From a virus, in IMG/VR virus record IMGVR_UViG_3300042465_003344, positions 1 through 39,990 of that record: DNA of 39,990 nucleotides. One strand, given 5' to 3'. The notes below the pieces were generated by a model, which was given only the letters and a program-made list of their open reading frames with translations, was not told the DNA's origin and ran no database searches. A program made the position numbers and the translations under genes. Below are positions 11,278 through 32,524 of the stretch, in pieces; the stretch's first letter is position 1, and every line of letters starts with the position of its first letter.

Positions 11278-12267
11278 TTAGGGCTTGAGAATCACACCGC
11301 TGAATTCGGCGCGGTTAGGGGTAACGCCGTAGCTCATGTGAGCATCGACGAACCACTGCTTGGTAACCTTGTCGTAGAAAACATCGGTAGTCAAGGGGAT
11401 AGTCTCACCGGCCAGCAAAGCGCGGGGAGAGAACACGGAAGCCACGACCTTGGAGAAGTCGCCATCGTAAGCAGTGCCCAGCAAGTGAGAACTGATAACG
11501 CTACCGCCCGGGAAGTTGGTCGAGGACATAACGGGGACGCCGTAAGCCTTGAGCAAGTGGCCCTGAATCGAGGTGCCTTCCGAGGTCTTGTACGTACCGT
11601 CAATCAACTGCTCGTTCTGGAGCAAGGTGTAGAACTCAGCAGGGCGAAGGGCGATAGCCACATCGTCGGTGCGAGGATCAACGTCCTTCTCTTCCAACTT
11701 GACGAACAAGTTAGCGATAGCTGCGTACAGCTTGGCTGGGTCGAGGGCATCGCCAGCGGCAGCAAGGGTCTGCTGCGAACCACCGAAGTGACCAGCAGGT
11801 TTGCCAGAGGCGCCCGAACCTTTGTAGGTGGACTCAGTGAACAACGCGGCCTTGATAGCCTGAATGAAGAAGGACTGGTCCCAGAACTTGGCGATCTTCT
11901 TACCGTGCTCCATACCGATTTCCTTACGGGAGTCGTAAGAGGTCTGGAAGGTTTCCAGCAACGGGAGCACAGCACGGGCCAAGATGACGGTATCAATCGT
12001 CAGGGTGCGCTTAGCGAAGTCGGTGTTCGTACCGTCGATAGGCGAACCCGGAGTAGCCTTCTGCAAGGTGGACTCACCAACCGCGAAGTTAGTGATGGTC
12101 GATGTGCCCTTAACAGGGCGAACGGTAACCCAGCCCTTGAGGGCGGCTTTGCGTTCGATAGTGGATTCCACGATGCCGGTGAACTCTTCCAAGTGCAGGG
12201 CAGAAACGGAGCCAGATTGATTGGATTGCCCGGGGCGGACAATGTTGTACGAGTCGTCAAGTGCCAT
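11278..12267 (-). CDS. Major capsid protein (gp10-like)
   Basis: 329 residues (T7 gp10A has 344). It begins MALDDSYNIVRPGQSNQSG, followed by an N-arm and E-loop-like segment (EFTGIVESTIERKAALKGWV) typical of the T7-like HK97-fold capsid family. Context is decisive: scaffold gene upstream, terminator and tail tube A downstream. It has its own phage promoter motif (12320-12335), a stable leader hairpin (12294-12314) and an AGGAG ribosome binding site, all consistent with very high expression. No frameshifted longer form is evident. Confidence 0.95.
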   Translation of the reverse strand: MALDDSYNIVRPGQSNQSGSVSALHLEEFTGIVESTIERKAALKGWVTVRPVKGTSTITNFAVGESTLQKATPGSPIDGTNTDFAKRTLTIDTVILARAVLPLLETFQTSYDSRKEIGMEHGKKIAKFWDQSFFIQAIKAALFTESTYKGSGASGKPAGHFGGSQQTLAAAGDALDPAKLYAAIANLFVKLEEKDVDPRTDDVAIALRPAEFYTLLQNEQLIDGTYKTSEGTSIQGHLLKAYGVPVMSSTNFPGGSVISSHLLGTAYDGDFSKVVASVFSPRALLAGETIPLTTDVFYDKVTKQWFVDAHMSYGVTPNRAEFSGVILKP

Positions 12268-12314: not shown

Positions 12315-12319
12315 ATTGG

Positions 12320-12335
12320 TACTACTGGTACTGAA
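12320..12335 (-). promoter_or_regulatory. Phage RNA polymerase promoter motif P2
   Basis: Minus-strand TTCAGTACCAGTAGTA in the short gap between scaffold stop and capsid start, the place of the strong phi10 promoter in T7. It is identical to P1 over 20 bases. Confidence 0.8.
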
Positions 12336-12337
12336 AC

Positions 12338-13078
12338 TCAACCGCGATGTAAACCACGGCGACGCTGTAGATCAGCGTACTCTTTGCTACCTTCTAACCG
12401 CCCTCCCAGCTTGTTGTTAAGGGCCTGCACAGCGGCAGAGTATTCCTTAGAGCTAAGCGGCCCGTTAGTTGCGTTAGGTACACCACCGCCTGAGCCGGCA
12501 TTAGCCAGCGCATCACGGGGGTTAACCTCTACGTTGTTAGCACGGGCATAGGCCCTAGCCAGATACTGCACTGCGCCCTTAGCGGCCACGCCGCCTTGGT
12601 TCAGCAGGATATTAATCTCGGCCTTCTCCTCCGGGGTGGCGCTTGTGCCCGCCCACGCTTTGATGGCATTCCAGTTCTCCTCCCCGCCTGCTTCCTTGTA
12701 GACGGCCTCACGGCCCGCTGTGGCCTTCTTCTCGGTCTCTGCTGCTGTGCGGGTATAGGCCACCTCGCCAAGGGCTACGAACTGTTCCCAGCCCTGCACA
12801 CCCTTAGCCGCTAGCGTGGCTTTAAGGATGGAGAAGTCCCCGTCCTTAGCTGCCAGCATAGCGGGGTGGTTAGCGTCGATGCCTGCCTTACCCACGAAGT
12901 TCAGGGCCATGTCTAAGCCCACGTCACCCGTAGGTTCGTACTCGATAGCGCCTGATGGGTCTACTGGGGCCTCAGCAACTGGGACTACAACGACCGGCGC
13001 TGTGTCCAGCAGGATACTCTCTGGGGCCTTAGCCTCTACTGGTTCGGCTACGATAGGGTCTGCTACTTGATCTGTCAT
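12338..13078 (-). CDS. Scaffolding protein (gp9-like)
   Basis: 246 residues. Acidic, proline-, valine- and alanine-rich N-terminus (VVVVPVAEAPVDPSGAIEYE), an alanine-rich helical middle and a basic arginine-rich C-terminus (DLQRRRGLHRG) that would contact the capsid protein. This composition, plus a position between portal and capsid, is characteristic of T7-like scaffolds, which guide procapsid assembly and then leave. The start ATG lies 1 bp after the stop of the Tad2-like gene. Confidence 0.88.
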   Translation of the reverse strand: MTDQVADPIVAEPVEAKAPESILLDTAPVVVVPVAEAPVDPSGAIEYEPTGDVGLDMALNFVGKAGIDANHPAMLAAKDGDFSILKATLAAKGVQGWEQFVALGEVAYTRTAAETEKKATAGREAVYKEAGGEENWNAIKAWAGTSATPEEKAEINILLNQGGVAAKGAVQYLARAYARANNVEVNPRDALANAGSGGGVPNATNGPLSSKEYSAAVQALNNKLGGRLEGSKEYADLQRRRGLHRG

Positions 13079-13079
13079 G

Positions 13080-13352
13080 TTATTCCTTAATCATCCAATC
13101 TTCGGCCAGCACGTCTGACTGACTAGCAAGCCACGGCACTACCTTGTTATCGGCAGTCTTCATGTCAATGTGGGGGCAATAGGTAACCTCTGCACCCTCA
13201 GGGTAAATACCAAGAAGTGGCGGGCGGCTTACTTTGAACACACTACCCGGTACGAGGAAGAGGAACATGTCCTTACCGTTCCAACCTACCCGTGTAACCT
13301 TGCGGCCTGTTTTCAACAGGCCAACTGCTACGCCAAAATCAAATGTTGTCAT
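13080..13352 (-). CDS. DUF2829 family protein, Tad2-like anti-Thoeris candidate
   Basis: 90 residues covering the whole DUF2829 family: F-G-V-A-V-G-L-L-K-T-G-R-K-V-T-R near the start, the signature GWNGKDMFLFLVPGS, then CPHIDMKTADNKVVPWLAS and a final D-V-L-A-E-D-W. Members of this family (Tad2) bind and sequester the cyclic ADP-ribose isomer made by the Thoeris defence sensor ThsB, so ThsA is not activated. Family membership is clear; anti-Thoeris activity is inferred. The start codon overlaps the portal stop (ATGA) and the scaffold gene follows at once, so this accessory gene is translated with the structural operon and would be expressed late. Confidence 0.85.
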   Translation of the reverse strand: MTTFDFGVAVGLLKTGRKVTRVGWNGKDMFLFLVPGSVFKVSRPPLLGIYPEGAEVTYCPHIDMKTADNKVVPWLASQSDVLAEDWMIKE

Positions 13353-14851
13353 TGAGGTTGTCCTTGTGCGGCGACTGTGCCGGCTTCTGTTGCTACTGTT
13401 TCACCAACGCGTTGCTCTGCCTGTGCTTGCTGCACTTGCGCAAACTCTGCGTCAGTCATGATGAACCTACTAAGGTCGATGTTGCGCCCTTGGCCGATGA
13501 AGGATGCTACATCCTCCCACTTCATACGGGCTGCTAGCTCTGGGGGTACGTTAACCACTGAGGCCATGTCACCCATTGCCATGCGGAAGTTCTCTAGGTC
13601 ACCGTTACGGCTAAGGGCGTCAAGCCCGGTAACGATAGTAACCTCTAGGTCTGCTCCGTTAAGGTCCAGCTTGATGGCCTCGAACAGCCAACGGGCTACG
13701 GGCTTCTGCAAGCTACCTGCTAAGGTAGAGTACACCCCGCCATAAGAAGTCTCAAGCTCTTGGGCAGTCATGCGGACTTCTTCCTGCGTGACTCGCTCAG
13801 CGTCTCTGATAACGGCACTTCCCATAAGGAAGCCCCGGCTAACCCGCCGCTCGTACTTGTCGAGGGTTTCGTTAGCGACCTGCACTGCGATGGGGTTACC
13901 ACCCTGTGTAGCTGCAACGTCAGAGGGTAAGCCTGGGAGGGCGTCACCGTTCTCGCTGTTGTTCATGTCCTCAATGCTGGTCTGTCCCGTGGGGTTAACC
14001 ATGAAGCGGAACTCTGTGCCAAGAACGGCACCATCCACTACGGACTCGCTAAGGACGCTCAGAGCCTCGAAGTCCCCAACGTACTCTTCCACTAGCCCGG
14101 TCCCGTAGTCGCTCTCGTCTGCGATGTCCCAAGTGATAGCTTGGTAAGGCAGCTTGTCGGCAGGCCAGCGACCATCGAAGGCTACAGGAAGCCGGTACTC
14201 GTTAACCCATTGGCTCATGGAGTACGCGCCGTTCTCCTCGCGCTTAATCCACTTGTAGAACTCTACCTTGGTATCGTCGTGGAACTGCTTGCGGTACATC
14301 TTGATGATGTCTTGGTCAAGCTCGTCGAACTTAACGTGCTCCTTGACGCAGAGGTGCATCACCTCGCCCCAGATGTTACGCTTAACCACGTAGTTCTTGA
14401 GGCCGATGACCCGCATACCGCGCTTCTCCAGCACCAGCAGGACGTTACCTGCTACGACTAGGTGGCGCATGACTGCGAACAGCTTAGGTCGTTGGCCCCG
14501 AGCATCAAGCTCCTTGATCGCTTGGCGCTCCCCGTTAGCAAGGATACCCTCAAGCTGAGTCTCGGTTAGCTTCATAGCCTCGGCCTGCTTCTTGGCCTTA
14601 GGCCCAGCCTGCAACTTAGCGAAGGGGCGGGACGGGGCGAACATAGCAAGCATCAGCTTATTGCTAAGGTGGTTAACTGCCTGTGCCCCGATACTCTGAT
14701 AGTCGTGAGACTCATCGGTGTTGTCAGAGTCATAGTTGTCTGGGTAGCAGACCTTGGGGATTGTCAGGGCGGCGTATCGTTCTACCCGGGTGATTAACCC
14801 AGTGCGCTGCCCTGAGCACGCCATCCATAGTTCGGAGGCTGAGTTAAACAT
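13349..14851 (-). CDS. Portal (head-tail connector, gp8-like)
   Basis: 500 residues (T7 gp8 has 536). The N-terminal half contains the T7-like portal signature around L-T-I-P and HLSNKLMLAMFAPSRPFAKL; the C-terminal part has a Q-E-E-V-R-M-T-A-Q-E-L-E helix and a glutamine-rich tail. It forms the dodecameric ring at the packaging vertex that binds terminase, scaffold and the internal core. It follows the gp7.3-like gene directly and overlaps the Tad2-like gene by four bases. Confidence 0.95.
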   Translation of the reverse strand: MFNSASELWMACSGQRTGLITRVERYAALTIPKVCYPDNYDSDNTDESHDYQSIGAQAVNHLSNKLMLAMFAPSRPFAKLQAGPKAKKQAEAMKLTETQLEGILANGERQAIKELDARGQRPKLFAVMRHLVVAGNVLLVLEKRGMRVIGLKNYVVKRNIWGEVMHLCVKEHVKFDELDQDIIKMYRKQFHDDTKVEFYKWIKREENGAYSMSQWVNEYRLPVAFDGRWPADKLPYQAITWDIADESDYGTGLVEEYVGDFEALSVLSESVVDGAVLGTEFRFMVNPTGQTSIEDMNNSENGDALPGLPSDVAATQGGNPIAVQVANETLDKYERRVSRGFLMGSAVIRDAERVTQEEVRMTAQELETSYGGVYSTLAGSLQKPVARWLFEAIKLDLNGADLEVTIVTGLDALSRNGDLENFRMAMGDMASVVNVPPELAARMKWEDVASFIGQGRNIDLSRFIMTDAEFAQVQQAQAEQRVGETVATEAGTVAAQGQPQ

Positions 14852-15779: not shown

Positions 15780-15798
15780 TGTGTTCCTTTGGATAACG

Positions 15799-15814
15799 TA
15801 CTACTGGTACTGAA
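15799..15814 (-). promoter_or_regulatory. Phage RNA polymerase promoter motif P3
   Basis: Minus-strand TTCAGTACCAGTAGTA placed exactly between the RNA polymerase stop codon (15815-15817) and the first virion gene. It would drive the whole late operon. Confidence 0.8.
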
Positions 15815-18256
15815 TCAAGAAAAGAAGAAGTCGCTCTCAAGGACTTCCATTATGTCTAACGAACCCTTGCTAGGTAGGGGCGGCAAGCCCGGGTATAACG
15901 CAGCAAGTTCTGCTGGTGGGTCACAGGCTAGGTACATGGCAACGAACTGCTTACGGATTGTATCGAACAATGCTTGGGCGTTTGCAGCGTGTGTACCGTA
16001 GTCATCGTGAATCATGGCGAGGGCTGTGATTCCTTGCCGCGCACAGTCCGCTGTGGTAAGGTGTAGGTGGGCGGCGTCCAAGCTGTGAACGAAGTTCGGG
16101 GCAAGGCCATTAGCGTGGCGGTTAACGTCAGGCTCCTCGCTCTCCGATAAAACCCGGATTTTAATTGGCCCGTGGAGCCATGTGTTAATCCTATGGACCT
16201 CAGCCACAAAGTAATCTTGGCAAGCCGGAAACCCCGAGGGCGTTGTCCACGCAATAACGTCTGTATCATCTTTACGTCCCTTCATTATAAGTCTAGCTGC
16301 TTTACGCAGCCAGTCCATAGCCTCTCGGCCCTTAACCACAACGTCCCCGATAGCGGGCCACACTGCGGACATGAGTAGAGTAGCTGCCCTGCGATACTCT
16401 GTCTTGTCGAACGTAGGACCAAGGCCCTCACGTAGGTAGTCATCAATGATGTACTCGGTGGCGCTACTCTTTGTCACACCGTAGGGTGTGGTCATCACGC
16501 TGCGCTTAACAGCCTTGCGGCTGATACCGTGGACTAACCACTTGTCCCGCATCGCTGCTTCCGCTGGCTCAAGCACCATAGCTGCAAGGCGCTTGGTTGC
16601 CGCTGTTGCTACGTTTGCATAGATGTCCTGCATCACCTCGTTGTTAGTAAGGTTCGTAGCCCGCCCGCCAATCTCGTCCCTAAACATAGCGCTGAGATTT
16701 TGTAAACCGTTGCAGCTTCCATCCATGCTGATTGGCAAGTGGCTTACGAATGTCTCTGGGTTCTGGATATATGACTCGTACTCAAAGCACCAAGCCAAGA
16801 ACTGTAGCGGGTCCCCTGCTTCTTGCCAGCCTGAGTTGTTCACTGGGTCGGCAGCAAAGCTAAGCAGTAGATCGGTGCGGTCCTTGACCCACTGCATACG
16901 CTCAGCTAACGTGGCCTTATCGAAGCCCCACTTGTTAGCGCCCTGCACATGGAACCACTTAACGCTGTTAGCGTCCGTCAGGGCTAGCCCCTCGGAGAAG
17001 TGGATGAGGGCCTTGCCCAGATCGCTGCCCTGTGGGTTGAGGCCGTAGGTCAAGGGGTACAGCCTGCCCCGGCTATCTGCAAAGTACACGAAGTAAATTG
17101 CGGGGTAGTCACGGAACATTTCAGCAGCCCGGGTGGCTGAGTAGAAGCGAGCATAGCGTACACCTAGTAGCTTGCGCTGGGTATGCCACTCAGTAGCCTC
17201 TCGCTTCCAGAGCTTGAACTCTTGGAGCTTGTCAGCGGGCCACTCTTCCTTAGGCTTCTTAGTCCACTCCTCCTTCAACCACTCGGGCTTAGCTGGCGCT
17301 GGTGAATCCGCCAAGCTAACAATCTCCTTGGTGGAGAACTCCTTAGCCACTGCCATGATGGTGTTAAGTAGCCGGACATTAACTGCCCATGCCGTGCGCT
17401 GCAATGCGTTAACCGCGCTGAACACTACGGGCATATCGGCATCCCGGCCCCGCAACCTAGCTATCGCACGACCATGAACGAGGTTACCGTTAGCACGGCG
17501 CATCTCCTTGGTGTGGAAACCCCCTGTAACACCGGCTGCCCAGTCCAGCGGGGGCTCAACGCACGGTCCATACACCGGCATGGTTACCGCAACGTATGCC
17601 TTAACCTTGTCGATGCGCTCTACGATTTCGGGGTTAATGTATACCTCGCGCTCATCGCGCTTGTGCCCTACTCGCTTCTCTCCCCCTAGCTCAATGAGCC
17701 CCGCTGTCTCCAGCAAGCCCATAAGGTAGAAGCCTACTTGCTCACGGCTACCGATGTCCCACTCTACCACGGGGATACCGCGCTGCTTGGCTTGCATTGT
17801 GAACACCCGCATACGGTGCCGGGCATCCTTAGACATACGCCGCCCGAAGTCTTGGGCTAGCGCTTGGTAAAGCTCAGGCGCCTCAGCGTGTATCTGAGAT
17901 AGGACTAGCTCACGGTGTACCGTCAGGCCGATGCCGTAAGCAAGGCCGCGATGCGTCTCGGGCTTGCTGGATAGCATCGTACTAATGGTGTGCCGCACTG
18001 CGAGGAAGGCAACTGCTTCTGCGTCGAGGCTACCAAGTAGCATAACGTGCGCCTGCCTACGCCCTGCTCGCTTGACCTCAAGGTCTGATCGGATGACACC
18101 AGCGAGGGGTAAGACGTATTCACTGAACAGCTCCTTAGAGTAAGGGTTTTGGTGGGCACGACCTTGCTCTTCGGCACGGGTCATTGATGTCTCGGCGCGG
18201 GTAATCCCGCCTCGGTACATTCGCGTCTCTACTTCTCGTTGGTCAAGTAATGTCAT
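15815..18256 (-). CDS. T7-type single-subunit DNA-directed RNA polymerase
   Basis: 813 residues (T7 enzyme 883, phiKMV-type about 815). All catalytic motifs are visible: FADSRGRLYPL (T7 D-W-R-G-R-V-Y), motif A MDGSCNGLQNLSAMFRDE with Asp512, motif B KRSVMTTPYG with Lys584 and Tyr592 at the T7 spacing, motif C IHDDYG with His750 and Asp751, and the C-terminal foot V-L-E-S-D-F-F-F-S matching T7 I-L-E-S-D-F-A-F-A. The specificity-loop region (about EVHRINTWLHGPIKIR) differs strongly from T7, in line with the different promoter motif found here. Its start overlaps the ligase stop (ATGA). Its place just before the head genes is the phiKMV arrangement, which delays late transcription until replication genes are read. 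Confidence 0.98.
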   Translation of the reverse strand: MTLLDQREVETRMYRGGITRAETSMTRAEEQGRAHQNPYSKELFSEYVLPLAGVIRSDLEVKRAGRRQAHVMLLGSLDAEAVAFLAVRHTISTMLSSKPETHRGLAYGIGLTVHRELVLSQIHAEAPELYQALAQDFGRRMSKDARHRMRVFTMQAKQRGIPVVEWDIGSREQVGFYLMGLLETAGLIELGGEKRVGHKRDEREVYINPEIVERIDKVKAYVAVTMPVYGPCVEPPLDWAAGVTGGFHTKEMRRANGNLVHGRAIARLRGRDADMPVVFSAVNALQRTAWAVNVRLLNTIMAVAKEFSTKEIVSLADSPAPAKPEWLKEEWTKKPKEEWPADKLQEFKLWKREATEWHTQRKLLGVRYARFYSATRAAEMFRDYPAIYFVYFADSRGRLYPLTYGLNPQGSDLGKALIHFSEGLALTDANSVKWFHVQGANKWGFDKATLAERMQWVKDRTDLLLSFAADPVNNSGWQEAGDPLQFLAWCFEYESYIQNPETFVSHLPISMDGSCNGLQNLSAMFRDEIGGRATNLTNNEVMQDIYANVATAATKRLAAMVLEPAEAAMRDKWLVHGISRKAVKRSVMTTPYGVTKSSATEYIIDDYLREGLGPTFDKTEYRRAATLLMSAVWPAIGDVVVKGREAMDWLRKAARLIMKGRKDDTDVIAWTTPSGFPACQDYFVAEVHRINTWLHGPIKIRVLSESEEPDVNRHANGLAPNFVHSLDAAHLHLTTADCARQGITALAMIHDDYGTHAANAQALFDTIRKQFVAMYLACDPPAELAALYPGLPPLPSKGSLDIMEVLESDFFFS

Positions 18257-28516: not shown

Positions 28517-29152
28517 TTATTCCTTGGTGGCTGTACAGATTTCGAGTAGACGGGCAGCTTGGGCGCTACGGGCGGCGCTACGGGCGGCGCTACGGGCGGC
28601 GCTATCGGCGGCGCTATAGGCGGCGCTATCGGCAGCGCTATAGGCGGCGCTATCGGCAGCGCTACGGGCGGCGCTATCGGCGGCGCTATAGGCGGCGCTA
28701 TCGGCAGCGCTACGGGCGGCGCTATCGGCGGCGCTATAGGCGGCGCTATCGGCAGCGCTATAGGCGGCGCTATCGGCAGCGCTACGGGCGGCGCTATCGG
28801 CGGCGCTATAGGCGGCGCTACGGGCGGCGCTATAGGCGGCGCTAAGCTGTGTTTGTGTAGCCTTGCCGTTTGCAAATGCTTCTGCGACCCGTAGTGCAGC
28901 AATACTTCTTGGGTCGGTTAGTAAATGCTCTACCTGCCTAGTACACCACACCGCGAATAGGCGTATTTCCCGATCATGCCCCTGTACGGCGCACAGGCTC
29001 CAGATAGCATCGTCTAGGCCGTTGCTTTCCAGAATGGTTGCGATTGACAGTGGCTCATTGTCGGCCTTAGTCTTGCCTAAGTGGGTGAGCAAGGTTTTCC
29101 AGCCGCTTTCACAGGGACCTTGTCTCCGAATCTCGTTAAGTGTTGTCATCAT
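28517..29152 (-). CDS. Alanine-rich SAAx-repeat protein
   Basis: 211 residues. The N-terminal 105 residues form a conserved phage domain (GPCESGWKTLLTHLGKTKAD, then E-S-N-G-L-D-D-A-I-W and R-E-I-R-L-F-A-V). The rest is 23 or so copies of the tetrapeptide S-A-A-x with x = Y, R or D, where D occupies nearly every second position, encoded by a 12-bp tandem repeat. Such a helix would carry i/i+4 Arg-Asp or Tyr-Asp pairs and could form a long single helix. Alanine-rich repeats after this N-terminal domain occur in several phages, with unknown function. The start overlaps the primase stop (ATGA). Confidence 0.8.
   Translation of the reverse strand: MMTTLNEIRRQGPCESGWKTLLTHLGKTKADNEPLSIATILESNGLDDAIWSLCAVQGHDREIRLFAVWCTRQVEHLLTDPRSIAALRVAEAFANGKATQTQLSAAYSAARSAAYSAADSAARSAADSAAYSAADSAAYSAADSAARSAADSAAYSAADSAARSAADSAAYSAADSAAYSAADSAARSAARSAARSAQAARLLEICTATKE
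28561..28851 (-). repeat. 12-bp tandem repeat array in coding sequence
   Basis: About 24 tandem copies of a 12-bp unit (plus strand GGCGGCGCTAYN with variants) remain in frame. A 48-bp higher-order unit occurs twice in succession (about 28659-28754) and again in part downstream. It is a coding minisatellite, open in several frames because the unit length is a multiple of three. Confidence 0.9.
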
Positions 29153-31878: not shown

Positions 31879-32370
31879 TTAGTGAAGATTAAACTCAACT
31901 TCGATAGGTACTTTATAAGGGCCTGACATCGGGTCTGTCACAATTGGGCCACGCCTTGGGCATACCATGACGTTGCCTGAGTGAATGTCGTTGAAGGCAT
32001 CCCATCTGCCTACTTCCTCACCAGTAAGGCTTTGAAGGTAGTACATAAATTCTTGGCGGGCTTTTTCAAAGGCAGACGAGTACATAACATCATCTAACTC
32101 GGCATAATCAAGCCGAGAATATGCTTCCATTACGGCCATATAATAGCCATCCTCGATCGCCGTTACTTGGTGCACCTCAGGCATCATAGGCATAAGCGTG
32201 CCAGCCTCACGGCGCAACATACAGAACTCAAGCCAATTACGTGTACCGTCATTCTCCCCGATCTTAACGATTTTACCGTTAGTCATACGGTAAACTTTGC
32301 TATACAAGCCCTCAGCCAAGTATTCGGCGGTACGCCCAACGGACGCAGTAAACAAGTCTTTTTGATACAT
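31879..32370 (-). CDS. Small gp0.7-like protein kinase
   Basis: 163 residues from ATG 32370, chosen for its AGGGG site; a frame to 32451 is open. It shows a reduced protein kinase fold similar to the kinase domain of T7 gp0.7: a G-L-Y-S-K-V-Y nucleotide loop, NGKIVKIGENDG with Lys36, and the catalytic segment F-N-D-I-H-S-G-N-V-M-V with Asp128 and Asn133, followed by metal-binding V-T-D-P-M (Asp146). T7 has F-D-M-H-S-G-N-I-M-F and I-T-D-P-V at the same places. T7 gp0.7 phosphorylates host RNA polymerase and RNase III and shuts off host transcription. The C-terminal shut-off domain of T7 gp0.7 is absent. It is early in the operon, as in T7. Confidence 0.8.
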   Translation of the reverse strand: MYQKDLFTASVGRTAEYLAEGLYSKVYRMTNGKIVKIGENDGTRNWLEFCMLRREAGTLMPMMPEVHQVTAIEDGYYMAVMEAYSRLDYAELDDVMYSSAFEKARQEFMYYLQSLTGEEVGRWDAFNDIHSGNVMVCPRRGPIVTDPMSGPYKVPIEVEFNLH

Positions 32371-32393
32371 AAATACCCCTAATAAAGCGCACT

Positions 32394-32423
32394 CCAAGGC
32401 CGTCGAATACACTACGGCTATGG
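32394..32423 (-). promoter_or_regulatory. Leader hairpin before the kinase gene
   Basis: Stem GCCGT/ACGGC with a 10-base loop, then a 2/2 internal loop and an outer CCA/TGG, about 24 bases upstream of the kinase start. It may be an RNase III type site or a translational control structure. Confidence 0.4.
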
Positions 32424-32524
32424 GCTGAACTTTGAGCAAAGACGTTCTCACACTTTAACGCTATCTAAGAACTGTAAAGAGCTAGCGAGTGAACTAAGCG
32501 ACTTAACGCAACAAGCGCACTACA

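What the first reader, a model, noticed from the sequence alone, without database searches (positions are those of the whole stretch)
13080..13352. Tad2-like anti-Thoeris gene embedded between portal and scaffold
The protein carries the full DUF2829 signature (GWNGKDMFLFLVPGS and VVPWLAS). Proteins of this family block Thoeris immunity by sequestering its cyclic ADP-ribose signal. Its place in the virion operon, overlapping the portal stop, would give late expression, which is odd for a counter-defence gene unless it must act when the signal is produced late. It may also mean a structural role or a different ligand.
Basis: partly seen in the sequence, partly recalled or inferred. Interest (0 to 1): 0.75.

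Follow-up and report, generated by a model that had tools for sequence, protein, structure and literature searches.

The report
Tad2 immune-signal sponge between phage genes
A T7-like phage picked up a single small gene, slotted neatly between two genes for building its particle, that most likely mops up the alarm molecule bacteria release when they sense a phage; the protein family is known, but its branch is untested and its placement next to the likely alarm triggers is instructive.

Summary
Window 13080-13352 (minus strand) encodes a 90-aa Tad2-like protein (Pfam PF11195, E 5.6e-24). Its predicted structure matches only solved Tad2/AcrIIA7 proteins closely, and it keeps every residue invariant across 55 homologues. 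The window is a near-complete T7-like (Autographiviridae) virus record related to Curvibacter phage P26059B.

The gene is a scarless 274-nt insertion between portal and scaffold. A relative with a 96%-identical portal has the empty site, and 35 relatives show no Tad2. Stop/start overlap with the portal is kept. Phage-RNA-polymerase promoter-like sites place it in one transcript with portal and scaffold, just before the capsid gene.

Other autographivirus-like lineages carry Tad2 at different places, also in the late block. Late placement is not odd: bacterial TIR defences are triggered by capsid (Thoeris) or portal (SpbK) proteins, so the sponge would be made together with its likely triggers.

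Most likely function: sequestering a TIR-made ADP-ribose signal. The gene belongs to a large sub-branch with R-P-L...Y..H-x-D residues missing from the three solved Tad2 proteins aligned here.

The parts
13080..13352 (-). tad2: 90-aa Tad2-like (PF11195) protein
13079..13352 (-). inserted segment: exactly 274 nt absent from the empty-site relative L101
   Evidence: blastn break at 13347/13078 with a 6-nt shared end
13347..13352 (-). ATGACA, upstream copy of the 6-nt direct repeat bounding the insertion (start of tad2)
13073..13078 (-). ATGACA, downstream copy of the 6-nt direct repeat (start of scaffold gene)
13349..13352 (-). ATGA stop/start overlap of portal and tad2 (probable translational coupling)
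13349..14851 (-). portal / head-tail connector
   Evidence: PF12236 3.5e-55, phrog_449 1.8e-167
12338..13078 (-). head scaffolding protein
   Evidence: phrog_1018 2.4e-56
11278..12267 (-). major head (capsid) protein
   Evidence: phrog_267 8.3e-87
15815..18256 (-). single-subunit phage RNA polymerase
   Evidence: phrog_414 1e-261
15798..15813 (-). phage-RNAP promoter-like site TCAGTACCAGTAGTAC at the end of the RNAP gene; nearest candidate promoter upstream of portal-tad2-scaffold
   Evidence: 7 sites, 0.51 expected
12319..12334 (-). phage-RNAP promoter-like site between scaffold and capsid genes
   Evidence: same pair of sites in empty-site relative L101
11195..11218 (-). intrinsic terminator-like hairpin plus T run after the capsid gene

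Best explanation
The gene encodes a member of the Tad2 family of phage sponge proteins. It was gained as a single-gene insertion in this phage lineage, precisely between the portal and scaffold genes, with stop/start overlap kept. The phage RNA polymerase would transcribe it from the promoter at about 15.8 kb together with portal and scaffold, just before the capsid is made at high level. The protein most likely assembles like other Tad2 proteins and binds, without degrading, an ADP-ribose-derived signal made by a host TIR-domain (Thoeris) sensor. That would keep the suicide effector from being switched on as virion proteins that can act as triggers accumulate. Shown here: family, fold, kept invariant residues, insertion, co-directional promoter and terminator layout, purifying selection. 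Inferred: tetramer, ligand binding, anti-Thoeris effect, timing.
For: PF11195 E 5.6e-24. Closest solved chains by sequence are Tad2 proteins: MoTad2 80 bits, SPO1 60 bits, SptTad2 56 bits. AlphaFold2 model pLDDT 95.7; all 24 Foldseek hits at E<=1e-3 are Tad2/AcrIIA7; VIA-align Z 12.8, rmsd 1.2 over 74 residues, 53% identity to MoTad2, the next unrelated fold at Z 5.7. R21 G23 W24 N25 G26 M29 W74 D80 D85 invariant in 55 homologues and kept in SPO1, MoTad2 and SptTad2. Empty site in L101 (portal 96%, capsid 97% identity) and no PF11195 in 35 relatives. Seven promoter-like sites, all on the coding strand, 0.51 expected. Constraint: pN/pS about 0.2-0.3 with synonymous sites near saturation. Type I and type II Thoeris-like effector genes with adjacent ThsB_TIR occur in the likely host family: 5 and 3 of 301 genomes. 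Capsid sensing by Thoeris (PMC12578639) and portal sensing by a TIR NADase (PMC12847820).
Against: No binding or infection data for this protein, and none that I found for its sub-branch. Host unknown; Thoeris-like effectors are rare in the host-family sample (8 of 301 genomes). The sub-branch has R43, Y58, H61, D63 where MoTad2, SPO1 and SptTad2 differ as a set, so the ligand could be different. Expression timing is inferred from sequence only. No tetramer prediction was possible.
Confidence: 0.78

Rival explanations
1. A Tad2 protein with a different ligand: the same sponge fold, but the sub-branch signature (R43, P45-L46, Y58, H61-x-D63) selects another nucleotide signal, for example from another TIR system or a cyclic dinucleotide system.
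For: The signature is near-invariant in the sub-branch (51 of 73 in the first set, 68 of 166 in a second set fetched with other queries). MoTad2, SPO1 and SptTad2 lack it. The tree puts the window in a 55-tip clade without any solved member. Position 61-65 is a strand in the model, and a review puts strand beta4 at the gcADPR pocket (PMC12043709).
Against: Pocket contacts were not computed; the residues may serve folding or oligomer contacts. The core invariant residues are the same as in SPO1 and MoTad2.
Confidence: 0.3
2. Anti-CRISPR (AcrIIA7-like) inhibitor of Cas9.
For: AcrIIA7 (8kbi) has the same fold (Z 11.2), and some phage homologues are annotated 'anti-CRISPR protein'.
Against: Solved entries show the AcrIIA7/HgmTad2 protein bound to 1',2'-cADPR and cGG, so the name does not mean a separate mechanism. 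AcrIIA7 is more distant than MoTad2 and SPO1 Tad2 by sequence score.
Confidence: 0.06
3. A virion assembly or structural protein (for example a head decoration or portal accessory).
For: Position between portal and scaffold; weak fold similarity to a neck protein of phage 812 (Z 5.7, 3.0 A).
Against: Absent from 35 relatives, including one with 96/91/97% identical portal/scaffold/capsid. Relatives of the protein sit in unrelated gene contexts. Z 5.7 is within the range of chance arrangements stated by the tool.
Confidence: 0.05

Closest known systems
MoTad2 (ModTad2) of a Myroides odoratus prophage, PDB 9eib and 8v3e; binds His-ADPR, inhibits type II Thoeris (per PMC13299392)
   Same: Same fold (Z 12.8, 53% identity over 74 aligned residues); all core invariant residues kept; shares VPG and Y.P segments
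   Different: 48% identity overall; lacks R43, H61 and D63 of the window's sub-branch (T, Y, A instead)
SPO1 Tad2 (gp34.65), PDB 8sme/8smf/8smg; binds 1''-3' gcADPR, inhibits type I Thoeris
   Same: Same fold (Z about 12, tied with MoTad2), KTADN and SQ.DVLAEDW segments
   Different: 47% identity; in SPO1 it lies in a cluster of small genes, not in a virion operon; sub-branch residues absent
SptTad2 and HgmTad2 (= AcrIIA7), PDB 8wjd, 8kbi-8kbk; bind cyclic dinucleotides as well as cADPR isomers
   Same: Same fold (Z 11-12)
   Different: 101 and 104 aa with a longer insertion said to carry the dinucleotide site (PMC12043709); the window protein is 90 aa without the extra length
Tad2 homologues of other Autographiviridae: Drulisvirus (KMI6, KPPK108.1, PWKp9B), Phimunavirus koot (Momine), Proteus phage PmP19
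   Same: Tad2 gene in the late block of a T7-like phage
   Different: Other insertion points (after capsid; between two large late genes, probably internal virion proteins; after terminase) and 46-56% identity, so separate acquisitions are likely

Membership tests
Tad2 (PF11195) | Profile match over the family cut-off | tested here: met
   84.9 bits against 25
Tad2 (PF11195) | Tad2 protomer fold | tested here: met
   pLDDT 95.7; only Tad2/AcrIIA7 chains at Foldseek E<=1e-3; Z 11-12.8
Tad2 (PF11195) | Conserved residues in the loops said to line the ligand pocket (GWNGK; W..S..D..A.D) | tested here: met
   R21 G23 W24 N25 G26 M29 W74 D80 D85 kept; assignment of these segments to the pocket from PMC12043709, contacts not computed
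Tad2 (PF11195) | Homotetramer | not testable with these tools
   only single chains can be predicted
Tad2 (PF11195) | Binds a TIR-made ADP-ribose signal and blocks Thoeris | not testable with these tools
   needs binding and plaque assays
Dinucleotide-binding Tad2 (SptTad2/HgmTad2) | Long insertion between beta2 and beta5 | tested here: not met
   90 aa against 101-104 aa; alignment lacks about 10 residues of the SptTad2 insertion
AcrIIA7 anti-CRISPR | Inhibits type II-A Cas9 | not testable with these tools
   fold shared; activity needs an assay
Virion structural protein | Conserved and syntenic in close relatives | tested here: not met
   absent from 35 relatives; empty site in L101

The most novel reading that the evidence does not exclude
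The window protein represents a large uncharacterised Tad2 sub-branch (R-P-L...Y..H-x-D) with its own signal ligand. T7-like phages repeatedly place such sponges in the late virion module so that the sponge is made together with the portal or capsid proteins that set off TIR defences ('just-in-time' counter-defence).
Probability: 0.25. Interest if true: 0.62.

Novelty: new member of a known kind. Interest (0 to 1): 0.42.

Why it matters
If right, it gives a clean natural pair (empty site and filled site in nearly identical virion operons) for testing whether one small gene switches a T7-like phage from Thoeris-sensitive to resistant. It also gives a testable reason why a counter-defence gene sits in a virion operon: bacterial TIR sensors read capsid and portal proteins, so the antidote rides with the trigger. 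The sub-branch signature names residues to test for ligand choice in a group none of whose members I found to have a solved structure.

Tried and rejected
Structural-protein reading: rejected because relatives lack the gene. Portal-scaffold junction as a general cargo hot spot: rejected; in all relatives where both ends could be seen the two genes are adjacent. Own promoter or terminator of tad2: none found; the single sigma-70-like hit in the region scanned is below chance expectation. Assigning the ligand by nearest neighbour: left open, since MoTad2 and SPO1 are tied in identity (48 against 47%) and structure Z (differences under 1), and the tree puts neither in the window's clade. PADLOC and NCBIfam gave no hit. 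Rfam and tRNA scans were empty. An IQ-TREE run timed out; only a FastTree tree was used. The claim that late placement is commoner than chance is not proven: about half of this genome is late, so five of five late placements has a chance of about 0.05, and the sample was not systematic.

Full report
The ORF at 13080-13352 on the minus strand starts with ATG, encodes 90 aa and carries the two motifs quoted. Pfam's Tad2-like family matches at E 5.6e-24. The gene upstream is the portal (phrog_449, 1.8e-167), the gene downstream the head scaffolding protein (phrog_1018, 2.4e-56), and then comes the major head protein. Portal and tad2 share an ATGA stop/start overlap, and tad2 ends one base before the scaffold ATG.

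Where it lies. The window is a 39,990-base IMG/VR virus record. RNA polymerase, DNA polymerase, portal and capsid are 72, 69, 61 and 85% identical to those of Curvibacter phage P26059B, a Kalppathivirus of the Autographiviridae. The genes are nearly all on the minus strand in the order replication, RNA polymerase, portal, tad2, scaffold, capsid, tail tube, internal virion proteins.

A precise insertion. In L101 (IMGVR_UViG_3300042465_002789), whose portal, scaffold and capsid are 96, 91 and 97% identical, the portal runs directly into the scaffold gene...CCTCAATGACAGATCAAG... The window reads ...CCTCA, then 274 extra bases, then ATGACAGATCAAG... Nothing else is lost, and the hexamer ATGACA stands at both ends. 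None of 35 relatives has a PF11195 match anywhere in the DNA held; several of these records exceed 40 kb, others are fragments. Wherever both genes are visible, portal and scaffold are adjacent. The gene is therefore most simply a gain in this lineage rather than a piece of the virion machinery. Its composition fits: G+C 49.8% against 54.9% for the window, and third-position G+C 53% against 61-71% for the other genes measured. Its closest relatives (72-79% identity) lie in unrelated phages. Comparison with them shows strong constraint on the protein (pN 0.15-0.21 against pS 0.65 to saturated).

Expression. A 16-base motif, TCAGTACCAGTAGTAC, occurs seven times with up to three mismatches, always on the coding strand, where 0.51 are expected. 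Copies lie at the end of the RNA polymerase gene (15813-15798) and between scaffold and capsid (12334-12319); L101 has the same pair. A strong hairpin with a T run follows the capsid gene at 11218-11195. The simplest reading, inferred, is that these are promoters of the phage RNA polymerase and that tad2 is transcribed with portal and scaffold and translated by coupling to the portal.

What it is. The AlphaFold2 model has mean pLDDT 95.7. All 24 Foldseek matches at E<=1e-3 are Tad2 or AcrIIA7 chains, the best being MoTad2 bound to His-ADPR; structural Z-scores are 11-13 for these and 5.7 for the next fold. R21, G23, W24, N25, G26, M29, W74, D80 and D85 are invariant in 55 homologues and kept in the solved proteins aligned. 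They fall in segments (GWNGK loop, and the strand, loop and helix near the C-end) that correspond to those a review describes as lining the ligand pocket (PMC12043709); I did not compute contacts.

Which ligand. Published members differ: SPO1 Tad2 binds gcADPR and MoTad2 binds His-ADPR (PMC13299392), while SptTad2 and HgmTad2 (the AcrIIA7 protein) also bind cyclic dinucleotides through a longer insertion (PMC12043709), which the window protein lacks (90 against 101-104 aa). MoTad2 and SPO1 are about equally near (48 and 47% identity). In a FastTree tree the window lies in a 55-tip clade with none of the solved members (support moderate, 0.66-0.88). That clade has near-invariant R43, P45, L46, Y58, H61 and D63. 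The combination occurs in 51 of 73 homologues of the first set and 68 of 166 of a second set fetched with other queries, and in none of MoTad2, SPO1 and SptTad2. The first set was fetched with peptides of the window protein and so is biased towards it; the second is less so. The ligand is therefore open.

Why in the virion operon. Thoeris of Staphylococcus and Streptococcus is switched on by the major head protein (PMC12578639), and the TIR NADase SpbK by a phage portal (PMC12847820). A sponge made with portal and scaffold, just before the capsid, would be present when the signal appears. Other T7-like lineages carry Tad2 homologues elsewhere in the late block: Drulisvirus between capsid and tail tube, Phimunavirus koot between two large late genes that are probably internal virion proteins, Proteus phage PmP19 after the terminase, and contig L017 after terminase and lysis genes. 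This is suggestive only: five cases, not systematically collected.

Is there something to counter? In 301 genomes of the family of a Limnohabitans MAG that itself carries a Tad2 homologue (L129), 3 have the type II Thoeris effector (ThsA_Macro) and 5 have STALD, typical of type I effectors; all 8 have a ThsB_TIR gene next to it. The host of the window phage is not known; the family was chosen because Curvibacter and Limnohabitans are both Comamonadaceae (my knowledge, grouping not checked in GTDB).

Verdict. An ordinary member of a known counter-defence family in an instructive setting. The membership is well supported, the function is likely but untested, and the ligand is open.

Noticed in passing
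window 28517-29152: ORF whose DNA holds about 22 copies of a 12-nt tandem repeat, giving Ala-Ala-x-Ser repeats; matches phrog_18326 of unknown function.
   Followed up: no
window 31879-32451: Small protein with weak similarity to the T7 gp0.7-type protein kinase / host transcription inhibitor (phrog_15752, 7.5e-11).
   Followed up: no
window 107-92, 12334-12319, 15813-15798, 22074-22059, 26005-25990, 34194-34179, 34965-34950: Seven promoter-like sites for the phage RNA polymerase, all on the coding strand; the three beyond 25 kb deviate from the consensus.
   Followed up: partly
L010:7887-8483, L024:7851-8267, L036:7860-8279, L083:1408-1884, L129:7764-8348: Tad2 domains joined to extra N- or C-terminal segments in one open frame (start sites not verified); PHROG profiles 1048 and 872 also place the domain at the C-end of longer proteins.
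   Followed up: no
L141:1473-1949, L142:1495-1950, L006:18531-18824: HNH endonuclease genes inserted in the virion operon of relatives (scaffold-capsid in Drulisvirus, capsid-tail tube in P26059B), so this block accepts small inserts at several points.
   Followed up: no
L129 genome (G035, Limnohabitans MAG): One genome carries both a Tad2 homologue and a type I Thoeris-like pair (STALD next to ThsB_TIR).
   Followed up: no
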